Source of the DNA: Sphaerochaeta pleomorpha str. Grapes
GTDB lineage: Bacteria > Spirochaetota > Spirochaetia > Sphaerochaetales > Sphaerochaetaceae
Direction of reading: 5' to 3'
NCBI RefSeq assembly: GCF_000236685.1
Contig: NC_016633.1
Location: 620,001-684,000, forward strand
Length of the DNA stretch: 64,000 bases
Shown here one piece after another: positions 1-18,926 of this stretch (position 1 is the first letter of the stretch; each line of letters begins with the position of its first letter). The position numbers and the translations under genes are program-made. The notes beneath the pieces were generated by a model, which made no database searches, had not been told where the DNA came from, and worked only from the letters and a program-made list of their open reading frames with translations.

Positions 1-1
1 A

Positions 2-946: not shown

Positions 947-960
947 ATTGGAGGTTTTTC

Positions 961-2232
961 ATGAGAAAAGGAATCATTTGTTTGCTTATCGCCTTTGCTG
1001 TAGCCTTCTCGCTAACGGCACAGGGAAACAGGGAAAGCGCCCCTATCACTCAAAACCCCGGAACAATGTCCGGAGTCTTGAATGTCTGGTCCTCAGGAGA
1101 GGAATTGGGCCGGTTTGTCGAAAACTTCAACAAGGACTATCCGAATATTGAAGTCAAGATTACGGTAGTACCCAACTCAGACTTTGTTGCCAAACTCACT
1201 CCCGCTTTGGCAGGGGGCCAGGGACCGGATATCTTTACCGGAGAATCCGATTACGTGAAATATTTCGTCAACGCAGGTGTCTGGGAAGATCTAAGGAAAG
1301 CCCCCTATAACGTCGACCAATATACCGATGATATGTGGCAATACGTACGCAGCGTAGGCACCGATGCCTCTGGCTCTGTAAGGGCCTTGAGCTGGCAGGC
1401 TTCACCCGGTTCATTAATTTACCGCAGGGATCTCGCACAAAAAGTCTTTGGTGTCAGCGAACCCGAGGATGTGGCAAAATTGTTGGACAGCAACCAGGCA
1501 ATGCTTAAAGCCGCTGCCGCTTTCAAAACCCAAGGCATCAAGATGTTTGCCTCCTGGGAAGACATAATGAACATGCAGTTTTCCAACCGTAAGGCTCCCT
1601 GGGTCCAGGATGGCAAACTCATCATCGACCCGTCTATGCTTGAATTCATGGATATGGCAAAAACCATCACCAATAATGGCTACGATCTTGGAGTCAGCCC
1701 TTGGGCTCCGGAATGGATGGCCGCGGTCGAAGGAAACGATTGCTTCTGCTATGTACTGCCGACCTGGGGATATCAGTTTGTTGTCAAACCCTCTGCATCA
1801 AATACCATCGGGAAATGGGGTCTTAGCCAAGGTGCCGTTCCGTATGTGAAAGGTGGTACCTGGTTGGGTATTAACAAAGACAGCAAGCAAAAAGACCTCG
1901 CGTGGGCTTTCCTCAGATATGTCACCTTGGATTCCGAGGCACAGATTGCCTATGCCAAACAGTATGGGGAATATGTGTCCCTTAAAAGTGCGGATACAGC
2001 CTTGGCCGCCGGTCTTGGCGAAGAAGTCTTAGCCGGACAGAATCTTTTTGCCTTCTACAATGACCAGATGGCAAAAATCCCCTCTGACTTGATGACTGCC
2101 TATGACGGCCAGTTGAATAATGCCTTTTTATCCACTGTACGTTCCTACGCTACGGGGATGTTAACCAAAGATGCCGCAGTGAACCAGTTCAAGGAAGACG
2201 CAAAGACCGCCTATCCTGAACTTTCCCTCTGA
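961..2232 (+). CDS. ABC sugar transporter, extracellular solute-binding protein
   Basis: Periplasmic binding component of a carbohydrate ABC importer (family 1 solute-binding protein, 423 aa, normal length). The N-terminus is a Sec signal peptide (MRKG, then a hydrophobic stretch to about residue 20, SLTAQG). There is no lipobox cysteine, so a soluble periplasmic protein rather than a lipoprotein is expected. The mature part has the typical LNVWSSGEE strand, GGQGPDIFTGE loop, and a late GGTWLGINKDSKQKDLAWAFLRY segment. The start is fixed by GGAGG at 949-955 just upstream. It lies between the LacI gene and the two permease genes. The ligand cannot be read from the sequence; the two GH30 genes downstream suggest a beta-linked oligosaccharide. 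Confidence 0.92.
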   Translation: MRKGIICLLIAFAVAFSLTAQGNRESAPITQNPGTMSGVLNVWSSGEELGRFVENFNKDYPNIEVKITVVPNSDFVAKLTPALAGGQGPDIFTGESDYVKYFVNAGVWEDLRKAPYNVDQYTDDMWQYVRSVGTDASGSVRALSWQASPGSLIYRRDLAQKVFGVSEPEDVAKLLDSNQAMLKAAAAFKTQGIKMFASWEDIMNMQFSNRKAPWVQDGKLIIDPSMLEFMDMAKTITNNGYDLGVSPWAPEWMAAVEGNDCFCYVLPTWGYQFVVKPSASNTIGKWGLSQGAVPYVKGGTWLGINKDSKQKDLAWAFLRYVTLDSEAQIAYAKQYGEYVSLKSADTALAAGLGEEVLAGQNLFAFYNDQMAKIPSDLMTAYDGQLNNAFLSTVRSYATGMLTKDAAVNQFKEDAKTAYPELSL

Positions 2233-2247
2233 CATATCGATGCTTTC

Positions 2248-2274
2248 ATGTCCCGGGAGGATATCCCGGGACAT
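2248..2274 (+). terminator. stem-loop between binding protein and permease genes
   Basis: Perfect 10-bp stem (ATGTCCCGGG at 2248-2257, CCCGGGACAT at 2265-2274) with a 7-nt loop and no following T-run. It sits in the short gap after the binding-protein stop. Placed like this, such hairpins commonly protect the upstream message or attenuate, giving more binding protein than permease. It also argues against the upstream in-frame start at 2240 for the permease. Confidence 0.7.
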
Positions 2275-2287
2275 CATCTGGGGACCA

Positions 2288-3184
2288 ATGAATACTCATA
2301 AGACAAAAACCTGGGCGGGATATGTGTTCATATCACCCTTTTTTATCATCTTTCTCATCTTTATCTTCTACCCTGCTTTGTACACCCTGTTTCTGAGTTT
2401 CAAAAAATGGGATGGACTGACTTCTCCTGCAGGTTTCGGAAGCTTTAATTTCAGGCGCTTAATCTTTGACAAGGTCTTTTATCTCAGCCTAGGGAACACG
2501 TTCCGCATCTGGGTATGCAATTTTATCCCACAGATGCTTTCAGCCCTGCTTCTTTCCTTTTTCTTTACCTTCAACAAGGTGAAGGGAATGAAATTCTTGC
2601 GTGCCGCCTATTACCTTCCCAACCTCATTACCGCGACCTCGGTAGGGCTGTTGTTCAATCTGCTCTTCAATGGTAAGAAATCAGCGGTAAACCAAATCCT
2701 CGCTTCCCTTGGTATTTCGGGTGCACCTTTCAGTTTTTTCAACAGTGAGCTATTCACCTCTTCCCTGGTTTCCTATATCCAATGGTGGATGTGGTTCGGT
2801 TATACCACGGTCATTATCATGGCGGGCATCACCTCCATCGATGCTGCAGTGTATGAGGCAGCCAGGGTAGACGGAGCTACCAAAATGCAAACCTACCTGC
2901 ATATCACTATGCCTCTGATCAGGCCTACATTGCTTTACATGACCATAACCTCAATAATCGGGGGAATGCAGCTGTTCGATGTACCCGTAACCCTGTCCAA
3001 CGGCATGGGAGACCCCCGCAAGGCAGTGCTTACCACTCCCATGTATCTCTATAACCAAGGCTTTGCCAGTCATAATTACGGGTATGCCTCGGCGCTTTCC
3101 ATAGGACTCTTTTTAATCATTGCACTGTTGAGTTTCTTGGCTTTCAGGGCGATGCGACATAAGGAGAATGTCTATGCGAACTAA
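2288..3184 (+). CDS. ABC sugar transporter permease (MalF/UgpA type)
   Basis: Inner-membrane permease subunit of the sugar importer. From the ATG at 2288 (MNTHKTKTW) it is about 298 aa with six predicted membrane segments. The cytoplasmic EAA loop that docks the ATPase is clear (EAARVDGATKMQTYLHITMPLIRPT). An alternative start at 2240 would read through the intergenic stem-loop and give an atypical N-terminus, so I prefer 2288, which has a weak GGGGA site upstream. It overlaps the next permease gene by 11 nt. No ATPase gene follows; in such operons a shared MsmK/MalK-type ATPase encoded elsewhere usually serves. Confidence 0.92.
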   Translation: MNTHKTKTWAGYVFISPFFIIFLIFIFYPALYTLFLSFKKWDGLTSPAGFGSFNFRRLIFDKVFYLSLGNTFRIWVCNFIPQMLSALLLSFFFTFNKVKGMKFLRAAYYLPNLITATSVGLLFNLLFNGKKSAVNQILASLGISGAPFSFFNSELFTSSLVSYIQWWMWFGYTTVIIMAGITSIDAAVYEAARVDGATKMQTYLHITMPLIRPTLLYMTITSIIGGMQLFDVPVTLSNGMGDPRKAVLTTPMYLYNQGFASHNYGYASALSIGLFLIIALLSFLAFRAMRHKENVYAN

Positions 3185-3995
3185 AACCTTGATCTCAGGT
3201 TTCTTCCAATATTTCTTTTTGTTGTTGTTGCTTTTCCTTTGTATCGTGCCGTTCTATTTGATGATTGTAAACTCCACCCATCTCAGTTTTGATATTTCCA
3301 CTAAGTTGAATATTTTGCCCGGAAAAGCCCTTGCAGCAAACTACATGACCATGCAATCGCTGGTGAATATCTGGAACGGGTTTTTCAATAGTCTGTTTAT
3401 TGCCATTCCCTTTACGTTTTGTACAGGGTATTTCGGTGCTCTTACCGCCTTTGGTTTCTCAAAATACCCAATGAAGCATAAAGAAGCATTGTTTGCCATC
3501 GTTTTGGCAAGCATGATGATTCCCGCACAGCTGGGAATTATCGGGTTTTACCACTTGAACCTGAAATTGCATCTGCTCAACTCCTACCTGCCGTTCATTC
3601 TGCCAGGCATCGCCAATGCCACCGCAGTTTTTTTCCTCAGGGGAATGGTTGACAGTGTCCCTGATTCCTTGATGGAATCGGCGCGGCTGGAGGGCTGTTC
3701 GGAATTCAGCATCTTCAACAGGGTTGTTTTGCCATGTGTGATGCCAGGTGTCGCAACAATGTGCATCTTCAGTTTTGTCACCAACTGGAACAACTATATG
3801 GGCCCGTTGATACTGATGACTAAAAGCGAACGCTATACTATGCCAGTAATGATTGCCATGATCAAAGGCTTGTATAAAACCAACTATGGGGCCATGTATC
3901 TGGCCATCGCCATTTCCGTTGTCCCCATTATTATTGTGTATTGTTTTATGTCAAAATATATTATCAGTGGATTAACCACTGGTTCAGACAAGTAG
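3174..3995 (+). CDS. ABC sugar transporter permease (MalG/UgpE type)
   Basis: Second membrane subunit of the importer, about 273 aa with six membrane segments and the EAA loop (ESARLEGCSEFSIFNRVVLPCVMPG). Two in-frame ATGs exist at 3168 and 3174. AAGGAG at 3161-3166 is only 1 nt from the first but 7 nt from the second, so 3174 is the likely start. The gene overlaps the end of the upstream permease, consistent with translational coupling, and ends 6 nt before the first GH30 gene. Confidence 0.92.
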   Translation: MRTKTLISGFFQYFFLLLLLFLCIVPFYLMIVNSTHLSFDISTKLNILPGKALAANYMTMQSLVNIWNGFFNSLFIAIPFTFCTGYFGALTAFGFSKYPMKHKEALFAIVLASMMIPAQLGIIGFYHLNLKLHLLNSYLPFILPGIANATAVFFLRGMVDSVPDSLMESARLEGCSEFSIFNRVVLPCVMPGVATMCIFSFVTNWNNYMGPLILMTKSERYTMPVMIAMIKGLYKTNYGAMYLAIAISVVPIIIVYCFMSKYIISGLTTGSDK

Positions 3996-4001
3996 GTATA
4001 T

Positions 4002-5327
4002 ATGAAAGAATATCAATTGAGAAGTTCTAATGTTGCATGCGTCTGGAAGGAAACCGCAGGCCAGGAAACAACCAGTTCATATGGGGTTGCCTTAAATGGG
4101 CAATCCTACCAAGGCATGCTGGGGTTCGGAGGGTGTTTCAATGAACTGGGCTATACTGCATTGGAAAAGCTCGATTCAGGACACCGAAAAAACCTGATGG
4201 AGGAGCTTTTCAAAGAAGCCTCTTTCAATGTCTGCCGTTTACCTATAGGGGCAAACGACTATGCAAAGAACTGGTATTCACTCGATGAATGCCCAGGAGA
4301 CTTCGACCTGAAGGAATTTTCCATCGAGCGGGATAAACAGATACTCATTCCTTATATCAAGGAAGCCTTGGCTGTGAACAAGGATATGGTATTATTCGCT
4401 TCTCCTTGGAGTCCACCAACTTGGTTGAAGAACCCTCCGGTATACAATTGGGGTAAATTAATCTGGGAAAAACAGTATTTGGAAACCTATGCCCAATATT
4501 TCGTACGTTTTGTCCAGGAATATGCAAAGGCAGGAGTCCAGGTTAATCAAATCCATGTACAGAATGAACCAGTGGCAAACCAAAAGTTCCCTTCCTGCAT
4601 GTGGACAGGAGAGGAGCTGAAAGTCTTTATCAGGGATTACCTTGGACCAGCCTTCAGAGAAGCTGGCATCGATTCCGAGATTTGGCTGGGTACGATCAAT
4701 GCCCCAGGGTGTGACTACAGGAAGTTGCTCTTTGACAAATGGGCAGAGGAAGATTATGACTATTTTGCCAATACGGTACTTTCAGACCCCAAGGCCTTGA
4801 GCTTCATCAGTGGCGTTTCGTATCAATGGGGCGGGAAGATTGCAATCCAGAGGACGTTCGAGAGCTGGTGGCCCCGTATCCGGCTGATGCAATCGGAAAA
4901 CGAGTGCGGTTTCGCTGATAACACCTGGGACTATGCCTTCTATACATGGACAATGCTCAAACACTACCTGACCAACGGGGCGGAAAGCTACTTGTACTGG
5001 AACATCGTACTTGAAGAGGGTGGATTCAGCACCTGGGGGGATCCCCAGAATTCCATGGTGACAGTACATCAAGACGGTACATACACCCTCAATCCTGATT
5101 ACTATATCATGAAACACTTTTCCTCCATTATCCAACGGGGGGCCGTACGCTTAGGTCTCACTGGTCCTTGGGCCGCCGATACCTTGATTTTTTGCAACCC
5201 CGATGGCTCCTATGCTGTTGAACTCTTCAATCCCTTTGAAACAGAGAAAGAAGTGGTGGTACAGTTGGACGGGAAATCAATCGCGTTTACCCTGCCAGGA
5301 CGATCAGTCAGTAGCGTGGTACTTTGA
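4002..5327 (+). CDS. GH30 family beta-glycosidase (glucosylceramidase-like), copy 1
   Basis: Retaining glycoside hydrolase of family GH30, 441 aa, a (beta/alpha)8 barrel with a C-terminal beta-sandwich. The acid/base glutamate is in VQNEP (Glu189) and the nucleophile in MQSENE (Glu299), at the expected spacing. The early motif GFGGCFNELG is the usual GH30 N-terminal signature. No signal peptide is present, so it acts in the cytoplasm on imported sugar. Family GH30 includes beta-glucosidases, beta-1,6-glucanases and xylanases; the exact linkage cannot be assigned here. It is the fifth gene of the operon and abuts a second, clearly diverged GH30 gene. Confidence 0.92.
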   Translation: MKEYQLRSSNVACVWKETAGQETTSSYGVALNGQSYQGMLGFGGCFNELGYTALEKLDSGHRKNLMEELFKEASFNVCRLPIGANDYAKNWYSLDECPGDFDLKEFSIERDKQILIPYIKEALAVNKDMVLFASPWSPPTWLKNPPVYNWGKLIWEKQYLETYAQYFVRFVQEYAKAGVQVNQIHVQNEPVANQKFPSCMWTGEELKVFIRDYLGPAFREAGIDSEIWLGTINAPGCDYRKLLFDKWAEEDYDYFANTVLSDPKALSFISGVSYQWGGKIAIQRTFESWWPRIRLMQSENECGFADNTWDYAFYTWTMLKHYLTNGAESYLYWNIVLEEGGFSTWGDPQNSMVTVHQDGTYTLNPDYYIMKHFSSIIQRGAVRLGLTGPWAADTLIFCNPDGSYAVELFNPFETEKEVVVQLDGKSIAFTLPGRSVSSVVL

Positions 5328-5329
5328 CA

Positions 5330-6667
5330 ATGCATACAAACCTTTATGTCACCTCAAGGGGAGAGGGAACTCCTCTTGAAAAAATGTCGATTATCCCCGG
5401 AATTATCGATGATGGAGGAATCGAACTGAACATCATCAATATATATCAGCAGGTAACCTTTCAAAAGCTTCAGGGTTTTGGGGGAGCAATTACCGAAGCA
5501 GTAGGTTCTGTCCTGGCTGCTTTACCCGAAGAACAAGCCTCAACCATCCTTCGCAGTTGTTTCAGCTCCGAAGGATTGGCGTACCGTTTTGTCAGGACCA
5601 GCATTGACAGTTGTGATTTTTCCCTCTCTGAATACTGTGCAGGAAAACAGGACGAAAGTTTTTCCCTGGAAAGAGACGAGATTTCCATTATTCCCTGGAT
5701 AAAAAAGGCTTATGAGATTGCAGAGGAGGCCTTTGCTGTCATGCTTAGTCCCTGGTCACCCCCTGCCTATATGAAAAGCAACGGCCAACGCTGCCAGGGC
5801 GGTTCCTTGAAAGACGAATATAAGACGCAATGGGCCGAGTATATATGTCGGTATATCAAGGCATACCGTGACCAAGGGATTCGAGTTGCATGCCTATCTA
5901 TACAGAATGAACCCAATGCAAACCAGAAATGGGAAAGTTGCCTTTACACAGGAGCTGAAGAAAAAGATTTTTTGCAAACCTACCTCTACCCTGCTCTACA
6001 GAAGTCACATTTGGAGGATATTGAAATTTTTGTGTGGGATCATAATAAAGAACGTCTTTTTGACCGTGCAGCAGCATGCATCGACGAAAAGACCGACCCG
6101 ATGGTGGCGGGTTTTGCCTTCCACTGGTATAGCGGTGACCATTTCGATGCCTTGCGTCTGGTCAAAAAGCGGTATCCCTCCAAGCGGTTGCTCTTCAGCG
6201 AAGGGTGCATCGAATATAGCCGTTATGACAAGGGCAACCAGTTGTACAATGCCCAGAAGTATGGGCATGAGATAATAGGGAACCTGAATGCAGGTATGGA
6301 TACGTTCATCGATTGGAATATCGTACTTGAAAGCAATGGAGGGCCAAATCACTGTAACAACTTCTGCGAGGCGCCTATTTTTGTCAATCGGGAAACCAAT
6401 GAGATTATCTATAATCTTTCTTACCGGTATATCTGGCATTTCAGCCATTTCATACAGCCTGGGGCTGTACATATAGCCTCCACAGGTTTTGACTCCACAG
6501 TTGAATCTGTGGCTTTCCGAAACCCTGAGGGTTCTTATGTCGTGGTAATAATGAATAGGAGTCAGAAAGAGCAGCCTATCAATTTGCGTATGGCAGGGTC
6601 TTTGTATTCCTTTGTCCTTGCCAAGGACAGTATTGCAACAGCGGTGCTTTCTGCAGGGGATCAGTGA
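5330..6667 (+). CDS. GH30 family beta-glycosidase (glucosylceramidase-like), copy 2
   Basis: Second GH30 enzyme, about 445 aa. It carries the family motif LQGFGGAITEA, the acid/base glutamate in IQNEPNANQ (Glu194 from the ATG at 5330) and the nucleophile in LLFSEGC (Glu291). It is a diverged paralogue of the preceding gene rather than a recent copy, as most residues differ outside the motifs. A TTG at 5324 overlapping the upstream stop is an alternative start; neither site has a strong ribosome-binding site. There is no signal peptide. Two cytoplasmic GH30 enzymes behind one transporter suggest complementary specificities on the same imported glycan. It is the last gene of the operon before the accessory island. 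Confidence 0.9.
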   Translation: MHTNLYVTSRGEGTPLEKMSIIPGIIDDGGIELNIINIYQQVTFQKLQGFGGAITEAVGSVLAALPEEQASTILRSCFSSEGLAYRFVRTSIDSCDFSLSEYCAGKQDESFSLERDEISIIPWIKKAYEIAEEAFAVMLSPWSPPAYMKSNGQRCQGGSLKDEYKTQWAEYICRYIKAYRDQGIRVACLSIQNEPNANQKWESCLYTGAEEKDFLQTYLYPALQKSHLEDIEIFVWDHNKERLFDRAAACIDEKTDPMVAGFAFHWYSGDHFDALRLVKKRYPSKRLLFSEGCIEYSRYDKGNQLYNAQKYGHEIIGNLNAGMDTFIDWNIVLESNGGPNHCNNFCEAPIFVNRETNEIIYNLSYRYIWHFSHFIQPGAVHIASTGFDSTVESVAFRNPEGSYVVVIMNRSQKEQPINLRMAGSLYSFVLAKDSIATAVLSAGDQ

Positions 6668-6670
6668 TTT

Positions 6671-6823
6671 TTAGATATCCTGGTAGCAATAATTGTTCAA
6701 GTTGCAGGTTCCAGGTAGTTGAAAATCGAGGATATTCTGAATTGTCTTAGGAGGCTGTAACGCCTCCAAGGCAATTTTTCGCTTGAACTCATCGGGAAAG
6801 GCCTTCTGCACTACACCATTTTG
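6671..6823 (-). pseudogene. remnant of IS3-family transposase OrfA (N-terminal part)
   Basis: On the minus strand an open stretch reads FPDEFKRKIALEALQPPKTI. This resembles the N-terminal helix-turn-helix of IS3-family OrfA proteins (typically S-x-E-F-K-x-K-x-A-L-E-A-L ... T-I). The frame opens after a stop at 6824-6826 and ends at 6671. No OrfB, no start with a ribosome-binding site and no terminal repeats are visible, so this is at most a fragment. The similarity is short and called from memory. Confidence 0.4.
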
Positions 6824-7026
6824 TCAGGCAATAGGAAAAACCAGCACAGTGAAGAGAAGAATGCCGCCTCTCGAAATTGAACCAAATAACAAAGCAAAGT
6901 ATAAAATATGGTGTTCGTTTTTCAATTGAGGAAATCGATTCAATAAAACTTTGTCTCAGACGGAAAATCAACAACATAGCTAAAAGTGTAATGCTATTTA
7001 TTGTGATACCCTTCAACGACTTCTTG

Positions 7027-7320
7027 AGGTTCAACTATCTCAGGCAGGTCGATATCCGTTGGCAGGGCCACCTGCTGGCCCTCGAGGACCTCAGGGATGC
7101 GGAAGGACTCCGTTCCTTTGCCCAGAAGAACCCGCTGGTCGAGTACAAGGTCGAGGGTTTCGAAATCTTCAGCCAGATGCTCGAGGATATAAAGGCTTTC
7201 ATGGCCAATACCCTGGTGCGGGTACAGATTACCCAGTCCGATGACAAATACAGCAGGAAGGCTGCCGCGCACAAGACCGTGGAGCCACACTCTGCCAAGG
7301 GTGCCTTCAACTGCTTTTGA
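7027..7320 (+). pseudogene. displaced 3' fragment of secA
   Basis: About 97 codons, in one frame with their own stop, match the C-terminal helical-scaffold part of SecA. RWQGHLLALEDLRD, LRSFAQKNPLVEYKVEGFEIF and MLEDIKAFMANTLVRVQI are close to the SecA consensus, followed by a short tail ending SAKGAF as SecA proteins often do. The remaining roughly 750 residues of SecA are absent upstream, where the sequence turns AT-rich and unrelated. It is therefore a copied or rearranged gene end, not a working gene. The block is visibly more GC-rich than its flanks, in keeping with a core-genome origin. Confidence 0.8.
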
Positions 7321-7383
7321 TATTCTAGAACTCCCGTTGATCATAGGGAAACTGAGTGTGCGCGGTATGATAATTTTACTGGA

Positions 7384-7539
7384 ATGAAAAACTTCCTTGA
7401 CATTCACAAACTGAGCGACTTGCATCTTCGGAACTCGCTTAAGAATTCGTTGACACCCGAGATGCTCGCATTCATTTCCCGAGCGATTTCCCGGCCGGAC
7501 ATATGGAGCACATACGATTTAAGAATGATACTTTTATAA
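7384..7539 (+). other. unrecognised short open frame downstream of the secA fragment
   Basis: A 51-codon frame beginning MKNFLDIHKL and ending at a TAA at 7537-7539, in the same frame as the secA fragment and open since its stop. It may be sequence that once flanked secA, or chance. There is no convincing ribosome-binding site and I recognise no family. The stretch 7540-7791 holds nothing I can support; an 84-codon minus-strand frame there has no family resemblance. Confidence 0.2.
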
Positions 7540-7791
7540 TCAAACATTCATTACCCCCAAAATTGAATATCTGCTGTTTTCCGAACAACGGATCAATTAT
7601 TGAGTGATAACCATTTGGCAGATAAGGGAAAACAATCAACTGAATGAGCGCACTGGAACCGTTGGCAGGTGCATCGTAGTTGTTTCCAAACGCATCACAA
7701 CCTTCTAGCTCCGCAAACCCTGCCATTCAGATTCGCCATATACACTAATTCTCTAGATACTGAAAATCATTTTATAAAATGTCCATAATAG

Positions 7792-8928
7792 TTATCTCAA
7801 TTTTAGTGTAATTCTATTTTCAGTATCATCGTCAAGAGGCTTAAGCATACCCTTTTCAAGATTTAAAAGTCCTTCTACCTCACGATAATCCATGGCCAAA
7901 CCACTATTCTCCAGTTCCTTCATAAATTCAGAGGAAGTATATCCACCTTGATTTAATAATAATGAAACGGCTTGTTCAAAAACTGATGGGGAAAGAACTG
8001 GAAGGACATTATCCAAAGGTTCTAAAGTTCTCCAATGCCGATATTGTATCTTCTTCATAAGATTCTGAAATTGTTCTTGCGTAAGAATCCCAGCAGAATT
8101 TGCCCTATAGAGCATAGCCTGAATTGATACCTGCCATTTCTTTTTTAAATAAACATAAAATTCAAGATTCAGTGGGTCCTTTTCAATCTCTTTGCAAAAA
8201 GTGTTCGGTGGTAAAAGTAGCGAAGAAGCAAATTCATTTGCTTCCTTTTCTCGCAATCTGAATTCTTCACGGCTTAAATCTTCTTCATCTTCACTCCATC
8301 CATGAAGCAAGATATGCCCAATTTCATGGGCGATATCGAATTGATATCTTACAGCAACATTCTTATTGCTAGAAAGAGAAATAATGTATATATCAACATT
8401 ATTTATACGAATCAATTGGCTGAACGCATCAATATCATCGGTATCAGTTTCAAATTTTGTAATAATCAAACCATTTAATTCTGCTATATGCATCAAATTA
8501 ACTAGAGGCCCATCTCCTAGTCCCCAAAACTCTCTTAATATTTTTGCTGCTTGCGAAGGTTCACATTCAGAGACTTTTGGTAAATGCAATTGGGGAAACT
8601 CTACAAATTCCTGAAGAATAGAATATATCGCTGCAACATGATTCATTTTTACAATTTGTTGATTACGATATTTTTTCTTAGTTGTCAACAATGAACGGAA
8701 ATATGTAGAACCTGTGCTTAAGGACAGATCAGGCTGATAGAAATATGCTACCGGAAATTTCAATTCTTTTGTGAATGAAAAAATTGTTTCTGTGGATGGA
8801 ACGGATTTACTGTTTTCATATAGAGAAATTGTCTGCTTGGACACATTTACAACATCAGCTAGCTGTTCAACAGTCAGCCCATTATAAATCCTAGCATCCT
8901 TAAGGCGATTCCCATTAAAAATTCTCAT
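7792..8928 (-). CDS. XRE-family regulator fused to ImmA/IrrE metallopeptidase
   Basis: Two-domain protein of 378 aa. Residues 4-58 form a Cro/C1-type helix-turn-helix (LKDARIYNGLTVEQLADVVN, then SKQTISLYEN). The C-terminal half is an ImmA/IrrE (M78) peptidase with the zinc motif HEIGH at about 201-205 and a downstream glutamate ligand in EKEANEFASSLLLPP. Relatives cleave or inactivate repressors, often in mobile elements, stress responses or toxin-antitoxin-like pairs; here the protein may regulate its own neighbourhood. The start is ATG 8928 preceded by GAGG; a TTG four codons upstream lies over that site. A perfect palindrome 15 nt upstream is a likely operator. Base composition is much more AT-rich than the core genes, suggesting transfer. 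Confidence 0.9.
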   Translation of the reverse strand: MRIFNGNRLKDARIYNGLTVEQLADVVNVSKQTISLYENSKSVPSTETIFSFTKELKFPVAYFYQPDLSLSTGSTYFRSLLTTKKKYRNQQIVKMNHVAAIYSILQEFVEFPQLHLPKVSECEPSQAAKILREFWGLGDGPLVNLMHIAELNGLIITKFETDTDDIDAFSQLIRINNVDIYIISLSSNKNVAVRYQFDIAHEIGHILLHGWSEDEEDLSREEFRLREKEANEFASSLLLPPNTFCKEIEKDPLNLEFYVYLKKKWQVSIQAMLYRANSAGILTQEQFQNLMKKIQYRHWRTLEPLDNVLPVLSPSVFEQAVSLLLNQGGYTSSEFMKELENSGLAMDYREVEGLLNLEKGMLKPLDDDTENRITLKLR

Positions 8929-8943
8929 ACTATACCTCAAACG

Positions 8944-8963
8944 ATGCCTAAAATATTAGGCAT
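8944..8963 (-). promoter_or_regulatory. palindromic operator candidate of the XRE-ImmA/IrrE gene
   Basis: ATGCCTAA (8944-8951) and TTAGGCAT (8956-8963) form a perfect 8-bp inverted repeat around AATA, 15 bp before the regulator start codon. This size and position suit autoregulation by a dimeric XRE helix-turn-helix. I did not see a second copy in the window. The rest of 8964-9204 is AT-rich and holds no gene I can support. Confidence 0.6.
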
Positions 8964-9204
8964 ATATATATTCAACCAACCAAAAAAAGTTGGATCATCA
9001 TAACAAGGAGACAAGCTTATCTGCAAAATGCTTAACTAAATGTCTTTGAACATCGAAATCTTGTCTCAAACACATATTCCTAATACACACCTCATTCCTT
9101 TTCTAGTTGTTATAGACCTTATATAAATTTTGACAACCTACATTAGAGACATCCCTATTTATGAATCGAAATCTATAACATTAAACATAAGAAGAAAAAA
9201 GATG

Positions 9205-9960
9205 CTACAGAGGGGTTTGCTTGTCAGCCTTTTCTCCAATAAATCTTACTCCTACTGATTGCTCCTTGGCTTTTTTATGCTTCTTTGCCTTATCTTTTAG
9301 TTTCAGTCCTACAGTTTTTACTTCTTCGAAAGTAGGAACTATTGCAGGCATTTGAACCTTGGTTTCAGCAAGCATATCTTTCATAAAAAGTGGCTCAAGA
9401 TTCATATCGGGAATAATTGCTTTCAAATATGATACGCGCTCGTCATTTATACCAAAAATGATAATTCCATATTGAGTAATAGACTGTTCGGGGAAGTGAA
9501 AAGTCAAATCACTAAATATTTGGCTAAATAATTCATTTTCTCCTTCTTTTTTTGTTTCAGAAAATATGAATAAATCTAATTCAGGCTGCACTAGGCTAGA
9601 AACCTGATTAGCATTTTTCAGCAAAGAGGCTTGTATATATCTTGGGATATCATCGTTTTTTGATGTACTTAATGATTCAAATCGTTGCTTTCTCATAAGC
9701 GTAAAGACAATTCCCGATTTTTGTTCAAGAATATATAGCAATCCCCAAGATCCGAACTTCAGCTTATAGTTCGATAATTCGGATGATGGGATTTTTCCAA
9801 TATTGGTATTTAGGAAATCCCAAAAACGACCACTTCTTCCATTCTGAGTGTTTGTAGGAAATTGAGACTCTTCCACCTTTAAGTCTTCTATTGCAGACTG
9901 AATGGCATCGAGCAAATATTGTGAAAGACTTCTACTAACAGTATCCAGTGGATTTCCCAA
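9205..9960 (-). CDS. uncharacterised protein, DUF5986-like, partner of ImmA/IrrE regulator
   Basis: A 251-aa soluble protein of unknown function; from memory its layout resembles DUF5986 proteins, which occur next to XRE-ImmA/IrrE genes. There is no signal peptide or membrane segment. The first 50 residues are helical, then SGRFWDFLNTNIGK, a YKLKFGSWGLLYILEQKSG beta-rich core, a TQYGIIIFGIND strand, and a lysine-rich C-terminus (KLKDKAKKHKKAKEQ) that could bind nucleic acid. The start is TTG 9960: AAGGAG lies 6 nt upstream of it and would be inside the protein if the TTG at 9978 were used. It is transcribed towards the regulator, 276 nt apart, from a good sigma-70 promoter. Base composition is AT-rich like its neighbour. 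Confidence 0.6.
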   Translation of the reverse strand: MGNPLDTVSRSLSQYLLDAIQSAIEDLKVEESQFPTNTQNGRSGRFWDFLNTNIGKIPSSELSNYKLKFGSWGLLYILEQKSGIVFTLMRKQRFESLSTSKNDDIPRYIQASLLKNANQVSSLVQPELDLFIFSETKKEGENELFSQIFSDLTFHFPEQSITQYGIIIFGINDERVSYLKAIIPDMNLEPLFMKDMLAETKVQMPAIVPTFEEVKTVGLKLKDKAKKHKKAKEQSVGVRFIGEKADKQTPL

Positions 9961-9991
9961 AGCAAACTCCTTAATCAATCAAGTTGTCACA

Positions 9992-10020
9992 ATATTAGTT
10001 TTTTTATTTAAATTTGTCAA
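9992..10020 (-). promoter_or_regulatory. sigma-70 promoter of the DUF5986-like gene
   Basis: On the minus strand TTGACA (10020-10015) is separated by exactly 17 nt from TAATAT (9997-9992), both near consensus, in a very AT-rich stretch about 32 nt before the TTG start codon. Confidence 0.65.
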
Positions 10021-10091
10021 TGTTTTATATATTTTTATAATATTTGTAAACTTGTCAAAACAAACAGCTATCTTTCCTAAAATCACAATTT

Positions 10092-10798
10092 TTGCATATG
10101 TTTAGAGGAAATATCCAGAGCCGCCTAATCCTGCTATCTCATGATTTTTGTACAGTAATTGACCTTGAGAAGGTCTGTAGGGACATAATAAAATCGCTTG
10201 GAAAAAACCCCAAACTAGGAAAACACTCAATAAATTATAGAGAGCTAGACCAATGGAAAATCCAAGAGTTTCGTATGAAAGTAATGAATATTCAAAACTT
10301 TTACAGATGGTATTTCTTTATGGCAGCAATCAACAAGATGATTATGAACCTTATATTGGCAATGTGATGCGAAGAATATTTGAAGCCTTTTCTACATTTG
10401 AATATCGAAGAGGTCCTAGTGAAATTTCTTGTGACCCAATAATCATAAAAGCTTTAAATAACGAAAAATATGAAACATATTTTGAGAATCTTATGTGCCG
10501 GCTCATATTAGATTCCGAAAGCCATACAAGAGATGGTATCATCTCTATGAATAATCTCATTTTTTTCAATGCCATATCATGTGATGACAAAAAAAGAACA
10601 GCACGTGATGTACTTTGCTTTATGCACTTATTAAACCCTGATCATGTGGCGGCACATCTAGAAAAAGACAAAACTATAATCCCTATTATAAAAAGCTGGG
10701 AACAAAACATACTTAGTGATTCAGATGCATCGAAAACTAATGGTATAACGCATACTTCTGGCTGCGAAAATCAGACTCCTCTCCTAGCCGCTAATTGA
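10092..10798 (+). pseudogene. frameshifted C-terminal remnant of a large AAA (AAA_13/RloC-like) ATPase
   Basis: Two overlapping frames together read as the end of one P-loop ATPase. Frame one (10092 to about 10280) has LSHDF, the histidine loop after Walker B in ABC-type ATPases, then REL.QWKIQEFR. Frame two (from about 10280 to 10798) continues NEYSKLLQMVFLYG, NVMRRIFEAF and ENLMCRLILDSESHTRDG. Such C-termini occur in AAA_13-type proteins, including anticodon nucleases and other phage-defence ATPases. A single-base indel near 10270-10290 separates the frames. The Walker A half is missing entirely, so the gene is both truncated and shifted. The family call is from memory of motif order. Confidence 0.55.
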
Positions 10799-11144
10799 TA
10801 AATCGATCCTAGTGAAGTAATCATTTTAGCAATCATTGATTATGACTAAGATTTCTTAATCGATTTTGCAAAGAAAGTGGGAAGTAACCCAAGAAATTAC
10901 CAAAATGTGCTTGAAGAAGAATTCGGATATCGTTAAATACCGACCTCGAACTGAATAGAACCTGATTACTAAGCTATTGGATCATCTTCGGTTCCCACAG
11001 TTACAATAGCTTTACCCAAGTCCTTGGCAAGGAAAGTAAAGAATACCCGACCTTTTAGCCGGGCAATTCAAACTAACCCAAGAAAACTGAATATTAGGAA
11101 GACCGAAATCCCGGGTACTTTTCTTGTATTTGCACTTCACTCTT
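10799..11144. other. gene-free stretch at the island edge
   Basis: 346 nt with no supportable gene, RNA or repeat. Short frames are interrupted repeatedly. Base composition changes here from the AT-rich island to the core genome, so an island boundary probably lies within or near it, but I see no attachment-site repeat. Confidence 0.4.
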
Positions 11145-13142
11145 CTATTTACCCTTCTCTTCCCTGAACAATTCCAGTACCCTTTCCACTTCACTCTCCC
11201 TATGATAGAAGAATACCGGTTTACCCAGCTCAGCCTTACAGGTGTGCCAGCCTTTTGCGTAGTCCTTGTTGTCCTGGAAGCCGGTGAAAGAATCATCGGG
11301 AAGATAGACTTTCACTGTTTTTCTACCTTTCTTCAACACGGGGGCTACCAATATGTCCCTGCCATAGAGGAACTGTGAGCGCATCGGCTTGAGCTCTGGA
11401 TAATGGATACCCATTTCCCTGATAAACGGCAAACCAGTGTTCTGGTATTCCTCTTCCATTGCCTGCAGATAGGGGTGTAAAACATCGTGCAGACATACAA
11501 GGTCCCCTATTGTCTTGACCAGAGCGGGGTCATCGTAGTACTGGGCATTGCGCTCTAGCTTGTTTCCCTCATGGCTTCGCATGAAGGGCGAGAAGACGGC
11601 AAGCTCTGCCCACCTGATGGCAAGGTCCCTGCTCCGTTTCACCCAGCCTAAGGTGGTGTAACCACCCATATCCGAATGCCAGTAGGGAAGAGCGCAGAGC
11701 CCCAGGCTCAAGGATGCAGGCACTACACTCTCCAAGCCATCATCCTTGTCATAGGAGACCATCTGGTCCCCTGCCCAGCACATGTCCATGGTTTTCCCAC
11801 TATCCAGATATCCGCTTCTGCTGAAAAAGAAACACTGCTCGCTTACCCCTGCTTCCTCAATCGCTTCCCTGTTCACCTCAGACCAGAGAACGGGAAAGAG
11901 GTTGTGAGTGGTCTCTGCATCACTCTTGTCAAAGAGCACGCTGTCAGTTGGCAGAAACTCCCCGAAGTCTGCCATCCACCCCGAAAGCCCTATAGCAATC
12001 ATATTCTTCTTGATAACCGTCTTTATCCAAGAGCGTGCCTCAGGGTTTGTCAAATCGATGATCGCGGCATCGAAAGACGTAACCTGGATGGCATAATCCT
12101 TTCCTTCTTTGTCCTGTACGCAGAACCCCAGGTTCGAAGCCTCTCTATACATCGGGCAGTCCATGGCAAGGTATGGGTTGATATACCCCAGTACCTTGAT
12201 TCCCTTTTCATGAATGGTTTCGATGAATCGGGGGAAATCAGGATACTGTTCCTTGTTGTACTCCCAGTTCCACAAAAGCTGGGACCCGAAGCTGGTTATA
12301 CGCTTTCCGACCCAGTCCTGCAGCCAGAGGGAGGTTATCGCCTTCGGTGCATACTGCTCGAACTTCCCTAGTTTCTCCAGTACGGCATTGGTTCCCCCCT
12401 GCAGGCCCAGACTCATGCCCTTGCCTACCCAAGGGGGAAGCCTGCGTTGCCTTTTCAGCCTTTGGCTGAGTCTTGCAATCGATTCTTTCAGGCTATCGGT
12501 TATCCATAGCTCGATTTTCTGGGGGATTTGCCAGAACGTAAGGCAATATTCCTCCTTTGCCTTGAAATCAAAAAGGGCATAGGAAGAGGTCTTTGCAACC
12601 ACAGCCCTTGTCTTGGTGACAAAGGCTGGCATGGAGAAATAGGTGCTGTAACGGGTTCCGCCTGCATGGGCGGCAAGGTCGCAGGCAAGCTTGACTGCAT
12701 TCGGTCCCCTACCCAGGCCCTGTTCCTGTACCCAGATGGGAATTTTCCGGTTTTTCAGGTCTACAAAGGAATACTGCTCCCCGCAACCATATATCGGTTC
12801 CTCTGCATTACAGCGGAAGCGGATAGAGAATCTGTTTATCTCATATTGTGTATCAGCTGTAAAAACTATGTTCACTGTACCCTTCTCGGCAGTGAGCACA
12901 AGCTTTCCATACCCTGCATACCGAAGGGTAATCTGCGTTTCTTCGATGTGTTCCACCACGGGGTCGCCCAAATCATACCAGAGCAATCCCTGTTCCCGTA
13001 TGGTATAAGAACCATGATGGCCTGTAAACTCGCCATTTGCTTTTCCAAGCCGGAGCAAAGGTTTCTTCTCTTGGTTGGCTATGATGCAGGTTCCCCTGAA
13101 ATATATCTCAAAGCCTTTTTTTGTATTCCTTAGTGCAAACAT
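11145..13142 (-). CDS. GH31 alpha-glycosidase, sulfoquinovosidase (YihQ)-like
   Basis: Retaining alpha-glycosidase of family GH31, 665 aa, cytoplasmic (no signal peptide). The nucleophile is Asp392 in GWMADFGE and the acid/base Asp459 in WAGDQ. The whole barrel tracks E. coli YihQ (recalled) with a constant offset of 13: Gln275, Trp291 and Tyr495 correspond to YihQ Gln288, Trp304 and Tyr508. The position of YihQ Arg301, which grips the sulfonate, is Gln288 here (SQLLW). A glucoside or another alpha-glycoside is therefore as likely a substrate as sulfoquinovosides. AAGGAG lies 11 nt before the ATG. It is divergent from a GPH symporter gene, the transporter family also used in the yih cluster, so uptake and hydrolysis are probably coupled. 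Confidence 0.88.
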   Translation of the reverse strand: MFALRNTKKGFEIYFRGTCIIANQEKKPLLRLGKANGEFTGHHGSYTIREQGLLWYDLGDPVVEHIEETQITLRYAGYGKLVLTAEKGTVNIVFTADTQYEINRFSIRFRCNAEEPIYGCGEQYSFVDLKNRKIPIWVQEQGLGRGPNAVKLACDLAAHAGGTRYSTYFSMPAFVTKTRAVVAKTSSYALFDFKAKEEYCLTFWQIPQKIELWITDSLKESIARLSQRLKRQRRLPPWVGKGMSLGLQGGTNAVLEKLGKFEQYAPKAITSLWLQDWVGKRITSFGSQLLWNWEYNKEQYPDFPRFIETIHEKGIKVLGYINPYLAMDCPMYREASNLGFCVQDKEGKDYAIQVTSFDAAIIDLTNPEARSWIKTVIKKNMIAIGLSGWMADFGEFLPTDSVLFDKSDAETTHNLFPVLWSEVNREAIEEAGVSEQCFFFSRSGYLDSGKTMDMCWAGDQMVSYDKDDGLESVVPASLSLGLCALPYWHSDMGGYTTLGWVKRSRDLAIRWAELAVFSPFMRSHEGNKLERNAQYYDDPALVKTIGDLVCLHDVLHPYLQAMEEEYQNTGLPFIREMGIHYPELKPMRSQFLYGRDILVAPVLKKGRKTVKVYLPDDSFTGFQDNKDYAKGWHTCKAELGKPVFFYHRESEVERVLELFREEKGK

Positions 13143-13167
13143 AGGATGCGATTTCTCCTTGTCCTAA

Positions 13168-13190
13168 TTTACTTTCCTCTTGAAAGTAAA
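13168..13190. promoter_or_regulatory. palindromic operator candidate in the GH31/symporter divergent region
   Basis: TTTACTTTC (13168-13176) and GAAAGTAAA (13182-13190) are perfect inverted 9-mers around CTCTT, 26 nt upstream of the GH31 start and 200 nt upstream of the symporter start. It is a likely binding site for a sugar-responsive repressor controlling GH31 and perhaps both genes. No regulator gene is adjacent. Confidence 0.6.
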
Positions 13191-13392
13191 CACTAAATAG
13201 TATCCCAAAGCAATACAATATACCTACTTTTCGGTTTCTCCCAATTGAACATGGACTTAGGATTTCCAAAAAAAAATATCGAAATGGGTATTCCCCAGTC
13301 CCAAAAGGTTTTCTTTACAACTGTATAGGGAAGGCGTATTATTTTCATTGAGAAAAAATACTACAGGTTATGTGAATAAGGAGAAAATCGGT

Positions 13393-14823
13393 ATGGAAGC
13401 AAGGAAAGTAACGACAAAGACGCTTCTGTCCTATGGGTGCGGGGATATCTACGGGGGTGGATCATTCTTGATTATCAGTACCCTTTTTATTTTCTTTCTC
13501 TCCAACGTAGTCGGGCTTTCCCCGGCAATTGCCGGTTTCATCGTGTTTGCAGGAAAATTCTGGGATGCGATAAGCGACCCGCTCTTCGGCTGTATCAGCG
13601 ACAGGACTAAAAGCCGGTTCGGGCGAAGAAGAGTATTCTTTCTCATCGGCATCGTTCCGGTTGCCGTGAGTTTCTTCCTACTCTGGTTGTCGGTCAGATT
13701 CGATAGCCAGATTCTGACAGCAGCCTATTATTTCTTTGCCTACCTGCTTTTCTGCACTGTATTTACCATGGTCATGGTGCCCTACAATGCCCTGGTAACA
13801 GAGATTACTACTGATTACAAGACGAGAACCAGGCTTTCAGGTGCAAAAATGCTCTTTTCCCAGTTCTCTGCCTTGCTTGCAGGGACAATCCCCGGGTTTA
13901 TCGTAAACAACCTGTATAAGGATAACCAAGCAAAAGGGTTCTTTTTGGTAGGCCTGTTCTTCGGTATTTTCTATGCCATTCCCTGGATTTTCGTATACAA
14001 GGGGACCTGGGAATCTACAGACCTTCCTTTGGCCCATTCAAAGTCACTGGGGGAATCATTCAAGGACCTCTCGTCCTTGATGAAGAACAAAACGTACAAA
14101 ATCCATATTGGCATGTACCTACTGGCTTATAGTGCCATGGATATCATGTCAGCCTGCTTCATCTATTTCGTCACGTATTATTTCGGACGACCCCAGATTT
14201 ACATCGTATGCCTGGGCTCCATGCTCCTTTCCCAGATACTTTCCCTGCCACTCTACCTTTTTACCGCAAATAAGATTGGTAAAGGAAGAACCTACACCAT
14301 AGGGGCAATCATTTTGAGCTTAGCGATGTGTTCATTCCTGTTCATCCCCTCAGATGTCTCCCTTGTCGGGCTAGTCGCGCTTTCCTGTATCATGGGAATA
14401 GGGTTCTCCGCAATCATCTCAATGCCCTGGGCAATGCTTCCCGAGTCGTCCGATGTCGATGAACTGCTCAACGGCAATGCGCGTTCTGGCGCAGTAGCGG
14501 GTATGTTCACCTTGATCCGCAAGTTGGTGCAGGCTTTCATACTCTGGCTGTTCGGGTCTTTGCTCTCGCTTATCGGCTTCAGTGCCGCCTTGAAGGCCCA
14601 GTCCCCCCAGACAATAGAGGGGATCAGGTTGATATTCTGCATCGTACCTTTGATCTGTATGTTCTTTGCAGTTTTGGTCTCCTTCAAATACCCGGTCAAT
14701 CCCCATACCTTCAAGGTAGTCAGAAAGGAATTGGATAGGTTGCACGATGGGGGCAAGAAAGAAGATGCCGATGAAAAGACCAAGGCAGTCTGCGAGAAGA
14801 TGACCGGGCATGCCTATAGATAG
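13393..14823 (+). CDS. GPH-family (glycoside-pentoside-hexuronide) cation symporter
   Basis: Twelve-segment membrane symporter of the major-facilitator-related GPH family, 476 aa, importing a sugar or glycoside with a cation. It shows the family's early DAISDPLFGCISDRTKSRFGRRR loop and a second cytoplasmic motif with MLPESSDVDELLNG. The start is ATG 13393 with AAGGAG at 13378-13383; the TTG at 13348 lies upstream of this site and is unlikely. It is divergent from the GH31 gene and shares its regulatory region. Members such as YihO/YihP, MelB and XylP move different glycosides, so the substrate is inferred only from the neighbour. A clear intrinsic terminator follows. Confidence 0.9.
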   Translation: MEARKVTTKTLLSYGCGDIYGGGSFLIISTLFIFFLSNVVGLSPAIAGFIVFAGKFWDAISDPLFGCISDRTKSRFGRRRVFFLIGIVPVAVSFFLLWLSVRFDSQILTAAYYFFAYLLFCTVFTMVMVPYNALVTEITTDYKTRTRLSGAKMLFSQFSALLAGTIPGFIVNNLYKDNQAKGFFLVGLFFGIFYAIPWIFVYKGTWESTDLPLAHSKSLGESFKDLSSLMKNKTYKIHIGMYLLAYSAMDIMSACFIYFVTYYFGRPQIYIVCLGSMLLSQILSLPLYLFTANKIGKGRTYTIGAIILSLAMCSFLFIPSDVSLVGLVALSCIMGIGFSAIISMPWAMLPESSDVDELLNGNARSGAVAGMFTLIRKLVQAFILWLFGSLLSLIGFSAALKAQSPQTIEGIRLIFCIVPLICMFFAVLVSFKYPVNPHTFKVVRKELDRLHDGGKKEDADEKTKAVCEKMTGHAYR

Positions 14824-14851
14824 ATTGATACTCTTTGCAACATATATAAAT

Positions 14852-14875
14852 AAACTCCCGTATGGGAGTTTTTTA
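14852..14875 (+). terminator. intrinsic terminator of the symporter gene
   Basis: AAACTCCC (14852-14859), loop GTAT, GGGAGTTT (14864-14871), followed by TTT, 29 nt after the symporter stop. Confidence 0.85.
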
Positions 14876-14949
14876 TAGGGGGCAACAATACTGTATTTTC
14901 ATCGTTGCCTTTGGAGCTTCCGCTTGATTTACCAGAATCTTAGGTATTC

Positions 14950-16068
14950 CTAAAAGAACTGCGAGGGGTCCAAAAAGATCCCCGATTGCTCGATGCTGAA
15001 GAACAACGTCGGCTTGTCGTAGTCGGTGCCACTGGTCCCGATACTGCCTATCGTCTCGCCTTTCGCTACCTTGGTGCCTATTTTAACCTCGACATTCTCC
15101 ATGTGCGTATAAGTGGTACGATAGCCCCCTTCATGGCTTATGACAACGAAACGCCCTTTTCCTTTTGCCTCATAGCCCGCATCGACGACGTTTCCCGCAG
15201 CCGCTGCCACTACCGCAGTCCCTGGCTTTCCGCTTATAAGGATTCCCAGGGAGGACTCCATATTACCGTTAGCAGGATTCTGATAAGGTTGGCCAAACAA
15301 AAGCGTCACCACCCCGTTGGCTGGGCTCTGGAACTGGATGGTTGCCACATCGGCCATCTGCGAAAGAGCGGGAGTAGACACATCGGGAATGAAAATCTTT
15401 TGCCCGACAATAATATTCTCGCTGGAAAGCCCATTGAGTTCCTGAAGGGTTTTCCACCCCAGACCTGGGTTGTATTTGCGTGCAATGGTAGAGAGCATAT
15501 CACCTTCGCGCACCGTATAGAGTTGGCCGTCGCGGTCAGGAACTCTCAATACCGTACCCTCTATGACTGCCTGGACGTTCCTAATCTGGTTTACGCTGAT
15601 GAGCGTCTGGGTCTTCAGACTGTACAGGTCGGCAATGGAATTCAGGTCTTCGCCGGCACCGACGACATGTTCTTCGTATTGTACCGTCTTTGTATTTGCA
15701 ATTTTCTTCTCAATGTCACCAAAGGCCTTCGCCTGGTTGTCGAGGACAATCGAATCAGGCGAACTTGGACCTACCGAGGTAGGGGTAATCACAGGTGCCA
15801 GGGACGTAGGCACATCTATGGCGGGAGCATCGGCGATTACCTCTACCTGGGTCTCCGTTGAAAACACATTCTCAGTTTGGACAGGGGGTGCAGATACCGT
15901 TACATCGTTTGGGAAAATCCTGTACCAAAGCACAATAACCACGACACAGATAGCTATACCCAAAGCTACGGTCCAAAGAATCCCTTTCGAGGGTTTACCG
16001 TCTGAATTTTCACTTCTCGACCTTTTTGAAGGTCGATCCGTCATATCATCATAGTTGTCTTTTACCAT
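14950..16068 (-). CDS. LysM protein with degenerate M23/LytM domain (NlpD-like)
   Basis: 372-aa envelope protein: a basic cytoplasmic tail, one membrane segment (about 30-48), a proline/threonine-rich linker, two LysM domains (about 130-178 and 183-230) that should bind peptidoglycan, and a C-terminal LytM fold (about 245-370). The fold keeps its glycine-rich strands (GTAVVAAAAGNVV, VKIGTKVAKGETIGSIGTSGT), but the zinc ligands are gone: the first H-x3-D motif reads ESSLGIL and the final HxH is TLF. It is therefore probably not a peptidase but an NlpD/EnvC-type activator of an amidase. It is divergent, 41 nt apart, from a class B penicillin-binding protein, which supports a role in septal wall splitting. 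Confidence 0.85.
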   Translation of the reverse strand: MVKDNYDDMTDRPSKRSRSENSDGKPSKGILWTVALGIAICVVVIVLWYRIFPNDVTVSAPPVQTENVFSTETQVEVIADAPAIDVPTSLAPVITPTSVGPSSPDSIVLDNQAKAFGDIEKKIANTKTVQYEEHVVGAGEDLNSIADLYSLKTQTLISVNQIRNVQAVIEGTVLRVPDRDGQLYTVREGDMLSTIARKYNPGLGWKTLQELNGLSSENIIVGQKIFIPDVSTPALSQMADVATIQFQSPANGVVTLLFGQPYQNPANGNMESSLGILISGKPGTAVVAAAAGNVVDAGYEAKGKGRFVVISHEGGYRTTYTHMENVEVKIGTKVAKGETIGSIGTSGTDYDKPTLFFSIEQSGIFLDPSQFF

Positions 16069-16109
16069 AACTCGACATTACCTTTCCTACATAGTATTAT
16101 AAAACAATC

Positions 16110-17792: not shown

Positions 17793-17794
17793 CA

Positions 17795-18916: not shown

Positions 18917-18926
18917 TGGTTTCCCT

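What the first reader, a model, noticed from the sequence alone, without database searches (positions are those of the whole stretch)
7792..10020. XRE-ImmA/IrrE regulator with an uncharacterised partner: possible new two-gene module
An AT-rich, promoter-equipped pair sits in an otherwise decayed island: a fused repressor/metallopeptidase and a 251-aa protein with a lysine-rich tail and no recognised activity (DUF5986-like from memory). Both look intact while neighbours have decayed, which suggests selection for the pair, as with toxin-antitoxin or defence-sensing modules. Established: ImmA/IrrE proteins act on repressors. Inference: the partner is the target or effector.
Basis: partly seen in the sequence, partly recalled or inferred. 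Interest (0 to 1): 0.75.

Follow-up and report, generated by a model that had tools for sequence, protein, structure and literature searches.

The report
RosmerTA defence pair, possible clamp blocker
The two genes are an intact copy of a known phage-defence toxin-antitoxin pair (RosmerTA), new for this genus; what may be new is that toxins across the whole family carry the short peptide that DNA polymerases use to grip the replication clamp, which suggests they stop growth by blocking that clamp.

Summary
At 7792-8928(-) lies an intact XRE + M78 (HEIGH) protein; at 9205-9960(-) an intact 251-aa DUF5986 protein. They form an AT-rich island between a secA fragment and a frameshifted AAA_13 remnant. 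The "new module" reading fails: PADLOC names the genes RmrA (E 3e-144) and RmrT (E 5e-30), i.e. the RosmerTA toxin-antitoxin/defence system. Linkage is near-absolute: 66 of 67 RmrA clusters with readable upstream DNA carry a DUF5986 gene directly upstream; the other has a fragment. Open is the toxin's mechanism. One RosmerTA toxin (pneumococcal RipA) was recently shown to act on the sliding clamp DnaN, at the pocket that binds QL[S/D]LF peptides. I find that 69 DUF5986 toxins have the consensus QLSLF in a low-confidence loop, and that the glutamine is kept in 94 of 104 RmrTs from three separate alignments, two of them of other RmrT types. The host's own DnaE carries QISLF. The RipA paper mentions no motif. 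So the family probably poisons the clamp through a polymerase-like peptide. In the window protein the motif is ELDLF (Q to E), as Q is also lost in several spirochaete relatives, so for this copy the mechanism is less certain.

The parts
9205..9960 (-). rmrT, DUF5986-type RosmerTA toxin, 251 aa (TTG start with GGAG upstream; a longer TTG start at 9978 is possible)
   Evidence: Pfam PF19448 E 3.8e-28; PADLOC RmrT PDLC03930 E 4.5e-30; AlphaFold model pLDDT 83
9568..9582 (-). clamp-binding-motif-like segment ELDLF (residues 127-131) of RmrT; family consensus QLSLF
   Evidence: alignment columns; low-confidence loop in the model
7792..8928 (-). rmrA, XRE helix-turn-helix + M78/ImmA-IrrE protease-domain antitoxin/repressor, 378 aa
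   Evidence: PADLOC RmrA PDLC03944 E 2.9e-144; Pfam HTH_3 and Peptidase_M78; NCBIfam spr1629 antitoxin E 3.9e-61, below its equivalog cut-off
8314..8328 (-). HEIGH zinc-ligand/catalytic motif of RmrA
   Evidence: HExxH present in all 166 RmrA homologues checked (HELGH or HEIGH)
8944..8963 (.). ATGCCTAA-AATA-TTAGGCAT inverted repeat just upstream of the rmrA start: candidate operator for autoregulation (inference)
   Evidence: sequence; found as a stem by the terminator scan
9992..10020 (-). candidate rmrT promoter TTGACA-17-TAATAT (a second TTGACA box at 10058-10053)
   Evidence: TTGACA or TTGATA boxes at the equivalent place upstream of rmrT in relatives
10092..10798 (+). frameshifted 3' remnant of an AAA_13 (PrrC/PDC-S06-like) ATPase gene, a probable decayed defence gene
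   Evidence: two overlapping frames; 39-47% identity to longer open frames
7005..7310 (+). stray secA 3' fragment flanking the island
   Evidence: SecA_SW E 2.8e-20; 80% DNA identity to the intact secA at G000 609570-612362

Best explanation
A horizontally acquired RosmerTA toxin-antitoxin system. RmrT is the toxin; RmrA is antitoxin and autorepressor, with an ImmA-type zinc-protease domain that probably acts as the sensor or switch. [quoted passage not shown] This displaces polymerases and stops replication of the cell and of a phage that relies on the host clamp (abortive infection). RmrA keeps RmrT silent until infection or replication stress inactivates it. Shown here: family membership, linkage, intactness, and motif conservation across the family. 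Shown by others for a relative (RipA/RipB): toxicity, neutralisation, and DnaN as target. Inferred: that this copy is active, that the loop motif is the contact, and what the trigger is. My odds: RosmerTA member 0.95; toxin-antitoxin pair 0.9; clamp as target for the RmrT family 0.7; for this very protein 0.5.
For: PADLOC RmrA 2.9e-144 and RmrT 4.5e-30. Linkage: of 70 RmrA clusters (90% identity) scoring at least 335 bits, 66 have the DUF5986 gene directly upstream on the same strand, 1 has a fragment and 3 end at a contig edge. RmrA is about 45% identical among 9 relatives while RmrT is only 18-30%. 61 of 63 more distant RmrA homologues also have an upstream partner of about 180-320 aa, and 9 of 10 such partners tested match PADLOC RmrT models. 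Motif: the consensus of columns 127-131 is Q-L-S-L-F; Q occurs in 63/69 and its column ranks 6th of 250 in information content, inside a region with pLDDT 53-56. In two separately built alignments of other RmrT types the motif Q is kept in 22/24 and 9/11. Q[LMI]x[LMIF][FL] occurs in 52% of DUF5986 RmrTs and 26% of other RmrTs, against 6% in shuffles and 4% in control ORFs. Profile-profile alignment, blind to the motif, places the Q motifs of the two largest partner clusters opposite that of DUF5986. The host DnaE has QISLF and the second DnaE QGDLF. Known consensus QL(S/D)LF (PMC9690074). RipA, a RosmerTA toxin, is suppressed by DnaN pocket mutations that also abolish the two-hybrid contact (PMC12795458). 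Relatives lie in type I R-M operons or beside an Eco57I/TaqI-type R-M gene.
Against: The window protein has E at the most conserved motif position (ELDLF); three Treponema relatives also lack Q. A different RosmerTA toxin (Gordonia phage Kita D5) depolarises membranes (PMC10440598), so RosmerTA toxins need not share one target. One C. difficile-type prophage lineage (L020-L031) keeps RmrA without RmrT, so RmrA can also serve as a plain repressor. No activity data exist for this locus.
Confidence: 0.62

Rival explanations
1. RosmerTA system whose toxin is an enzyme, for example a degenerate PD-(D/E)XK-like nuclease, with the QxxLF peptide serving only to bring it to replication forks.
For: The predicted order of elements is loosely like restriction-endonuclease folds; weak Foldseek matches recur to Hjc (probability 0.60), McrBC and EcoRV and to viral PD-(D/E)XK proteins. 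Polar residues N40 and D48 are nearly invariant or invariant.
Against: No match reaches E 0.001; I saw no D...(D/E)xK signature in the conserved columns; RipA toxicity is suppressed by clamp-pocket mutations (PMC12795458).
Confidence: 0.15
2. RosmerTA system whose toxin acts on another target such as the membrane, as reported for the Gordonia phage Kita toxin; the QxxLF-like loop is a structural or antitoxin-binding element.
For: PMC10440598 shows depolarisation by Kita RmrT-D5. The Q is replaced in the window protein.
Against: The Kita toxin is described as lacking similarity to other families; no membrane-spanning segment is evident in this RmrT sequence or its model; the motif matches the clamp consensus position by position in very divergent subfamilies.
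Confidence: 0.13
3. A prophage- or ICE-type repressor/derepression module (ImmR-ImmA-like): RmrA controls a mobile element and RmrT is an accessory, not a toxin.
For: RmrA is annotated as a cI-like repressor or transcriptional regulator in phiCD418 and phiCD27; solo RmrA occurs in a prophage lineage; the HTH resembles the ICEBs1 regulator.
Against: No phage or ICE genes were recognised beside the pair in the window; most relatives keep RmrT; RosmerTA pairs are tested toxin-antitoxin systems (PMC10440598, PMC12795458).
Confidence: 0.07
4. A decaying island in which the pair merely has not yet broken.
For: Neighbours are gene remnants; the pair is absent from the other genomes of the genus that were searched; unusually long gap between the genes; degenerate motif in RmrT.
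Against: Both frames, both start regions, HEIGH and the invariant residues are intact although an adjacent gene carries a frameshift.
Confidence: 0.1

Closest known systems
RosmerTA (RmrT/RmrA) antiphage toxin-antitoxin family (PADLOC; PMC10440598; PMC12322248)
   Same: Both genes match the family models; toxin-first order; HTH + M78 antitoxin; defence-island neighbours
   Different: Intergenic gap of 276 nt with a palindrome in front of rmrA, where 86 other pairs have -8 to 122 nt; RmrT is of the DUF5986 subtype
Streptococcus pneumoniae RipA/RipB (Spr1630/Spr1629), a RosmerTA system acting on DnaN (PMC12795458)
   Same: RmrA matches the spr1629 antitoxin model over most of its length (E 3.9e-61); toxin plus HTH-M78 antitoxin
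   Different: Score 207 bits is below the equivalog cut-off of 335; direct RipA-RmrT comparison not made; RipB action depends on ClpX
SocB (SocAB, Caulobacter), a toxin that blocks DnaN through a clamp-binding motif (PMC9690074)
   Same: Proposed mode of action: a clamp-binding peptide occupies the DnaN cleft
   Different: SocA is a ClpXP adaptor (own knowledge), not an HTH-protease; homology was not tested
ImmR/ImmA of ICEBs1 and CapH/CapP of CBASS
   Same: HTH repressor plus M78 metalloprotease logic; CapP model hit E 3.6e-21
   Different: Here both domains are in one protein and the partner is a DUF5986 effector

Membership tests
RosmerTA | Antitoxin RmrA: N-terminal XRE HTH plus M78/ImmA domain with intact HExxH | tested here: met
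RosmerTA | Adjacent RmrT-family gene on the same strand | tested here: met
   PADLOC RmrT E 4.5e-30; adjacency in relatives
RosmerTA | RmrT toxic, RmrA neutralises | not testable with these tools
   needs expression experiments
RosmerTA | Protects against phage | not testable with these tools
   needs infection assays
spr1629/RipB antitoxin (NF052239 equivalog) | Score above the curated cut-off of 335 bits | tested here: not met
   207 bits: a relative, not an equivalog
DUF5986 (PF19448) | Score above the gathering cut-off over the full length | tested here: met
   99 bits against 25, residues 12-241
Clamp-binding proteins (QL[S/D]LF motif) | Motif with Q at position 1 and a hydrophobic pair at 4-5, in an accessible segment | tested here: inconclusive
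   Family: met in most members. Window protein: ELDLF, Q replaced by E
Clamp-binding proteins (QL[S/D]LF motif) | Physical binding to DnaN | not testable with these tools
   no multimer prediction or binding assay available
ImmR-ImmA mobile-element switch | Linked integrase, excision or conjugation genes | tested here: not met
   none recognised by eye among the ORFs of window 1-20000; not scanned gene by gene with profiles

The most novel reading that the evidence does not exclude
The RmrT toxins of RosmerTA, DUF5986 included, are not an assortment of unrelated toxins: most belong to one very divergent superfamily whose best-kept feature is a polymerase-type clamp-binding peptide in a flexible loop. 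RosmerTA would then be a widespread class of sliding-clamp poisons, kept in check by an HTH-protease antitoxin.
Probability: 0.6. Interest if true: 0.72.

Novelty: new member of a known kind. Interest (0 to 1): 0.5.

Why it matters
The locus itself is one more RosmerTA system, here in a spirochaete where DUF5986 is rare (8 of 393 genomes of the phylum). The by-product matters more. RmrT toxins look unrelated to each other and their mode of action is mostly unknown; a shared clamp-binding peptide would give one testable mechanism for a large defence family. It would also explain why clamp-pocket mutations suppress RipA, and it points to natural proteins aimed at the bacterial replication clamp, a recognised drug-target site.

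Tried and rejected
Close relatives by tblastn: none in plasmids, three weak phage hits. A single-protein scan of viral contigs gave nothing, and the first RmrT alignment was too divergent to scan with, so RmrA was used as the anchor instead. An apparent RmrT-RmrA fusion (L011, 744 aa) is an artefact of a run of N. Structure searches of the RmrT models against PDB and BFVD gave no significant fold match, and a sequence-profile search of PDB gave none. Unrelated families from the same loci gave at most 1.7% HHalign probability against RmrT, so the 61-97% values for three partner clusters are not background; cluster pc2 stayed unlinked. An attempt to reach RipA itself via spr1629 homologues failed. 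Lactobacillales relatives found instead carry EISLF and QYNLF at the equivalent place; the Zymomonas plasmid partner has QLSLF; Gordonia Howe, Acinetobacter ABMM1 and coliphage Tritos partners show no clear QxxLF.

Full report
OBSERVATION. The downstream gene, rmrA (8928-7792, minus strand), has an XRE HTH and an M78 zinc-peptidase domain. HEIGH is in place, and its H, E, G and H, with the downstream E227, belong to the columns that are invariant among nine relatives; an HExxH was found in all 166 homologues checked. The upstream gene, rmrT (9960-9205), is a DUF5986 protein (PF19448, E 3.8e-28). The stretch is 33-34% G+C in a 44-50% neighbourhood. On one side lies a stray secA 3' piece, 80% identical to the intact gene about 15 kb away. 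On the other lies a frameshifted remnant of an AAA_13 ATPase whose longer homologues match PADLOC PDC-S06 and PrrC models.

IDENTITY. PADLOC calls the pair RmrA (E 2.9e-144) and RmrT (E 4.5e-30), i.e. RosmerTA. RosmerTA systems are described as toxin-antitoxin pairs with narrow anti-phage activity (PMC10440598; PMC12322248). NCBIfam places RmrA near the pneumococcal Spr1629 antitoxin, below the equivalog cut-off.

LINKAGE. DUF5986 was found in 8 of 393 genomes of the phylum. In seven of them, and in two C. difficile phages, an RmrA homologue lies directly downstream; the eighth (L011) has both genes with a run of N between them. Anchoring on RmrA gave 80 viral and 80 genomic loci. After clustering RmrA at 90% identity, 70 clusters score at least 335 bits: 66 have a DUF5986 gene directly upstream, one has a fragment, three end at a contig edge. 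Those clusters hide one prophage lineage (L020-L031), up to 92% identical to T-bearing relatives, that lacks the partner. Below 335 bits, 61 of 63 homologues still have an upstream gene in the same place. The other genomes of the genus lack the pair while the flanking GH31-MFS block is conserved in several, so the pair is a local acquisition. In Treponema relatives RmrTA sits inside a type I R-M operon; in other spirochaetes (L009, L010) it follows an Eco57I/TaqI-type R-M gene.

ORGANISATION. Relatives have gaps of -8 to 122 nt between the genes; here the gap is 276 nt and carries a 20-bp inverted repeat just upstream of the rmrA start (8944-8963), a candidate autoregulatory operator. This is inference.

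ONE FAMILY OF PARTNERS. The partners of the distant RmrAs look unrelated to DUF5986 by simple search. Profile-profile comparison links cluster pc3 (96-97%), pc1 (61-82%) and pc0 (66-76%) to DUF5986 over about 200 columns, and pc4 and pc6 to pc1 and pc0; unrelated control families reach at most 1.7%. Nine of ten tested partners hit PADLOC RmrT models. AlphaFold models of RmrT from the window (pLDDT 83) and of a pc0 member (pLDDT 88) share the order helix-helix-three strands-helix-loop-three strands-helix; the window model has an extra helix before the second set of strands. Neither matches a solved fold.

THE LOOP MOTIF. [quoted passage not shown] The word 'motif' does not occur in that paper, and no other paper listed by my search joins Rosmer with the clamp. 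That pocket binds QL(S/D)LF peptides, which can be internal (UmuC). In 69 DUF5986 RmrTs, residues 127-131 have the consensus Q-L-S-L-F (Q 63/69; L/I/M 49; S/T 44; L/F 59; F 48 of 67). Only five columns of 250 carry more information than the Q column, yet it lies in the part of the model with pLDDT 53-56. In separately built alignments of other RmrTs the motif Q is kept in 22/24 and 9/11, with forms such as QISLF, QADLF and QPDLF. The host's replicative polymerase has QISLF and its second DnaE QGDLF; its clamp is an ordinary DnaN. Strict pentapeptide matches are about nine times commoner in DUF5986 RmrTs than in shuffles. Two cautions: I turned to this motif after noting the conserved Q column and reading about RipA, so it is not a fully blind prediction; and related sequences are not independent, although identity to the window protein is only about 14-26%.

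THE WINDOW COPY. Here the segment reads V-Q-P-E-L-D-L-F: the hydrophobic LDLF is kept, the Q is E in register (a Q lies two residues earlier). Four of the six DUF5986 RmrTs without Q are spirochaetal. A Lacticaseibacillus phage partner has EISLF, so E may be tolerated, but this is unproven.

MECHANISM. Most likely RmrA represses and neutralises RmrT; when RmrA is inactivated or switched by infection or replication stress, RmrT plugs the DnaN pocket and stops replication. ImmA-family proteases act on repressors, which makes self-processing of RmrA or of its HTH plausible, but nothing here tests it. Rivals are listed separately.

VERDICT. Known kind, new member; the clamp-peptide finding is the part worth a bench test.

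Noticed in passing
window 7005-7310: Stray 3' fragment of secA, 80% identical to the intact secA at G000 609570-612362 about 15 kb upstream; possibly a scar of recombination or of an imported segment.
   Followed up: partly
window 10092-10798: Frameshifted C-terminal remnant of an AAA_13 ATPase (PrrC/PDC-S06-like); longer homologues in L203 and L204 carry a CPYC motif, and the one in L204 is followed by an OLD-like ATPase gene.
   Followed up: partly
L020-L031: C. difficile-type prophages in which an RmrA up to 92% identical to T-bearing relatives stands without RmrT: an antitoxin apparently reused as a repressor.
   Followed up: partly
L110 and L119: RmrTA lies between hsdS and hsdM of type I R-M operons in Treponema: an R-M system with a built-in toxin-antitoxin pair.
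   Followed up: no
window 4002-6667: Two adjacent glycosidase genes (about 31% identical to each other, GH30-like from memory) beside a LacI/ABC sugar locus; the second has almost no homologue in the genus.
   Followed up: no
L209 (own DnaN): At the place of E. coli clamp His175 (TDGHRL) this host has Arg (TDGRRL); this residue lies in the peptide-binding region and might relate to the loss of Q in spirochaete RmrTs.
   Followed up: no
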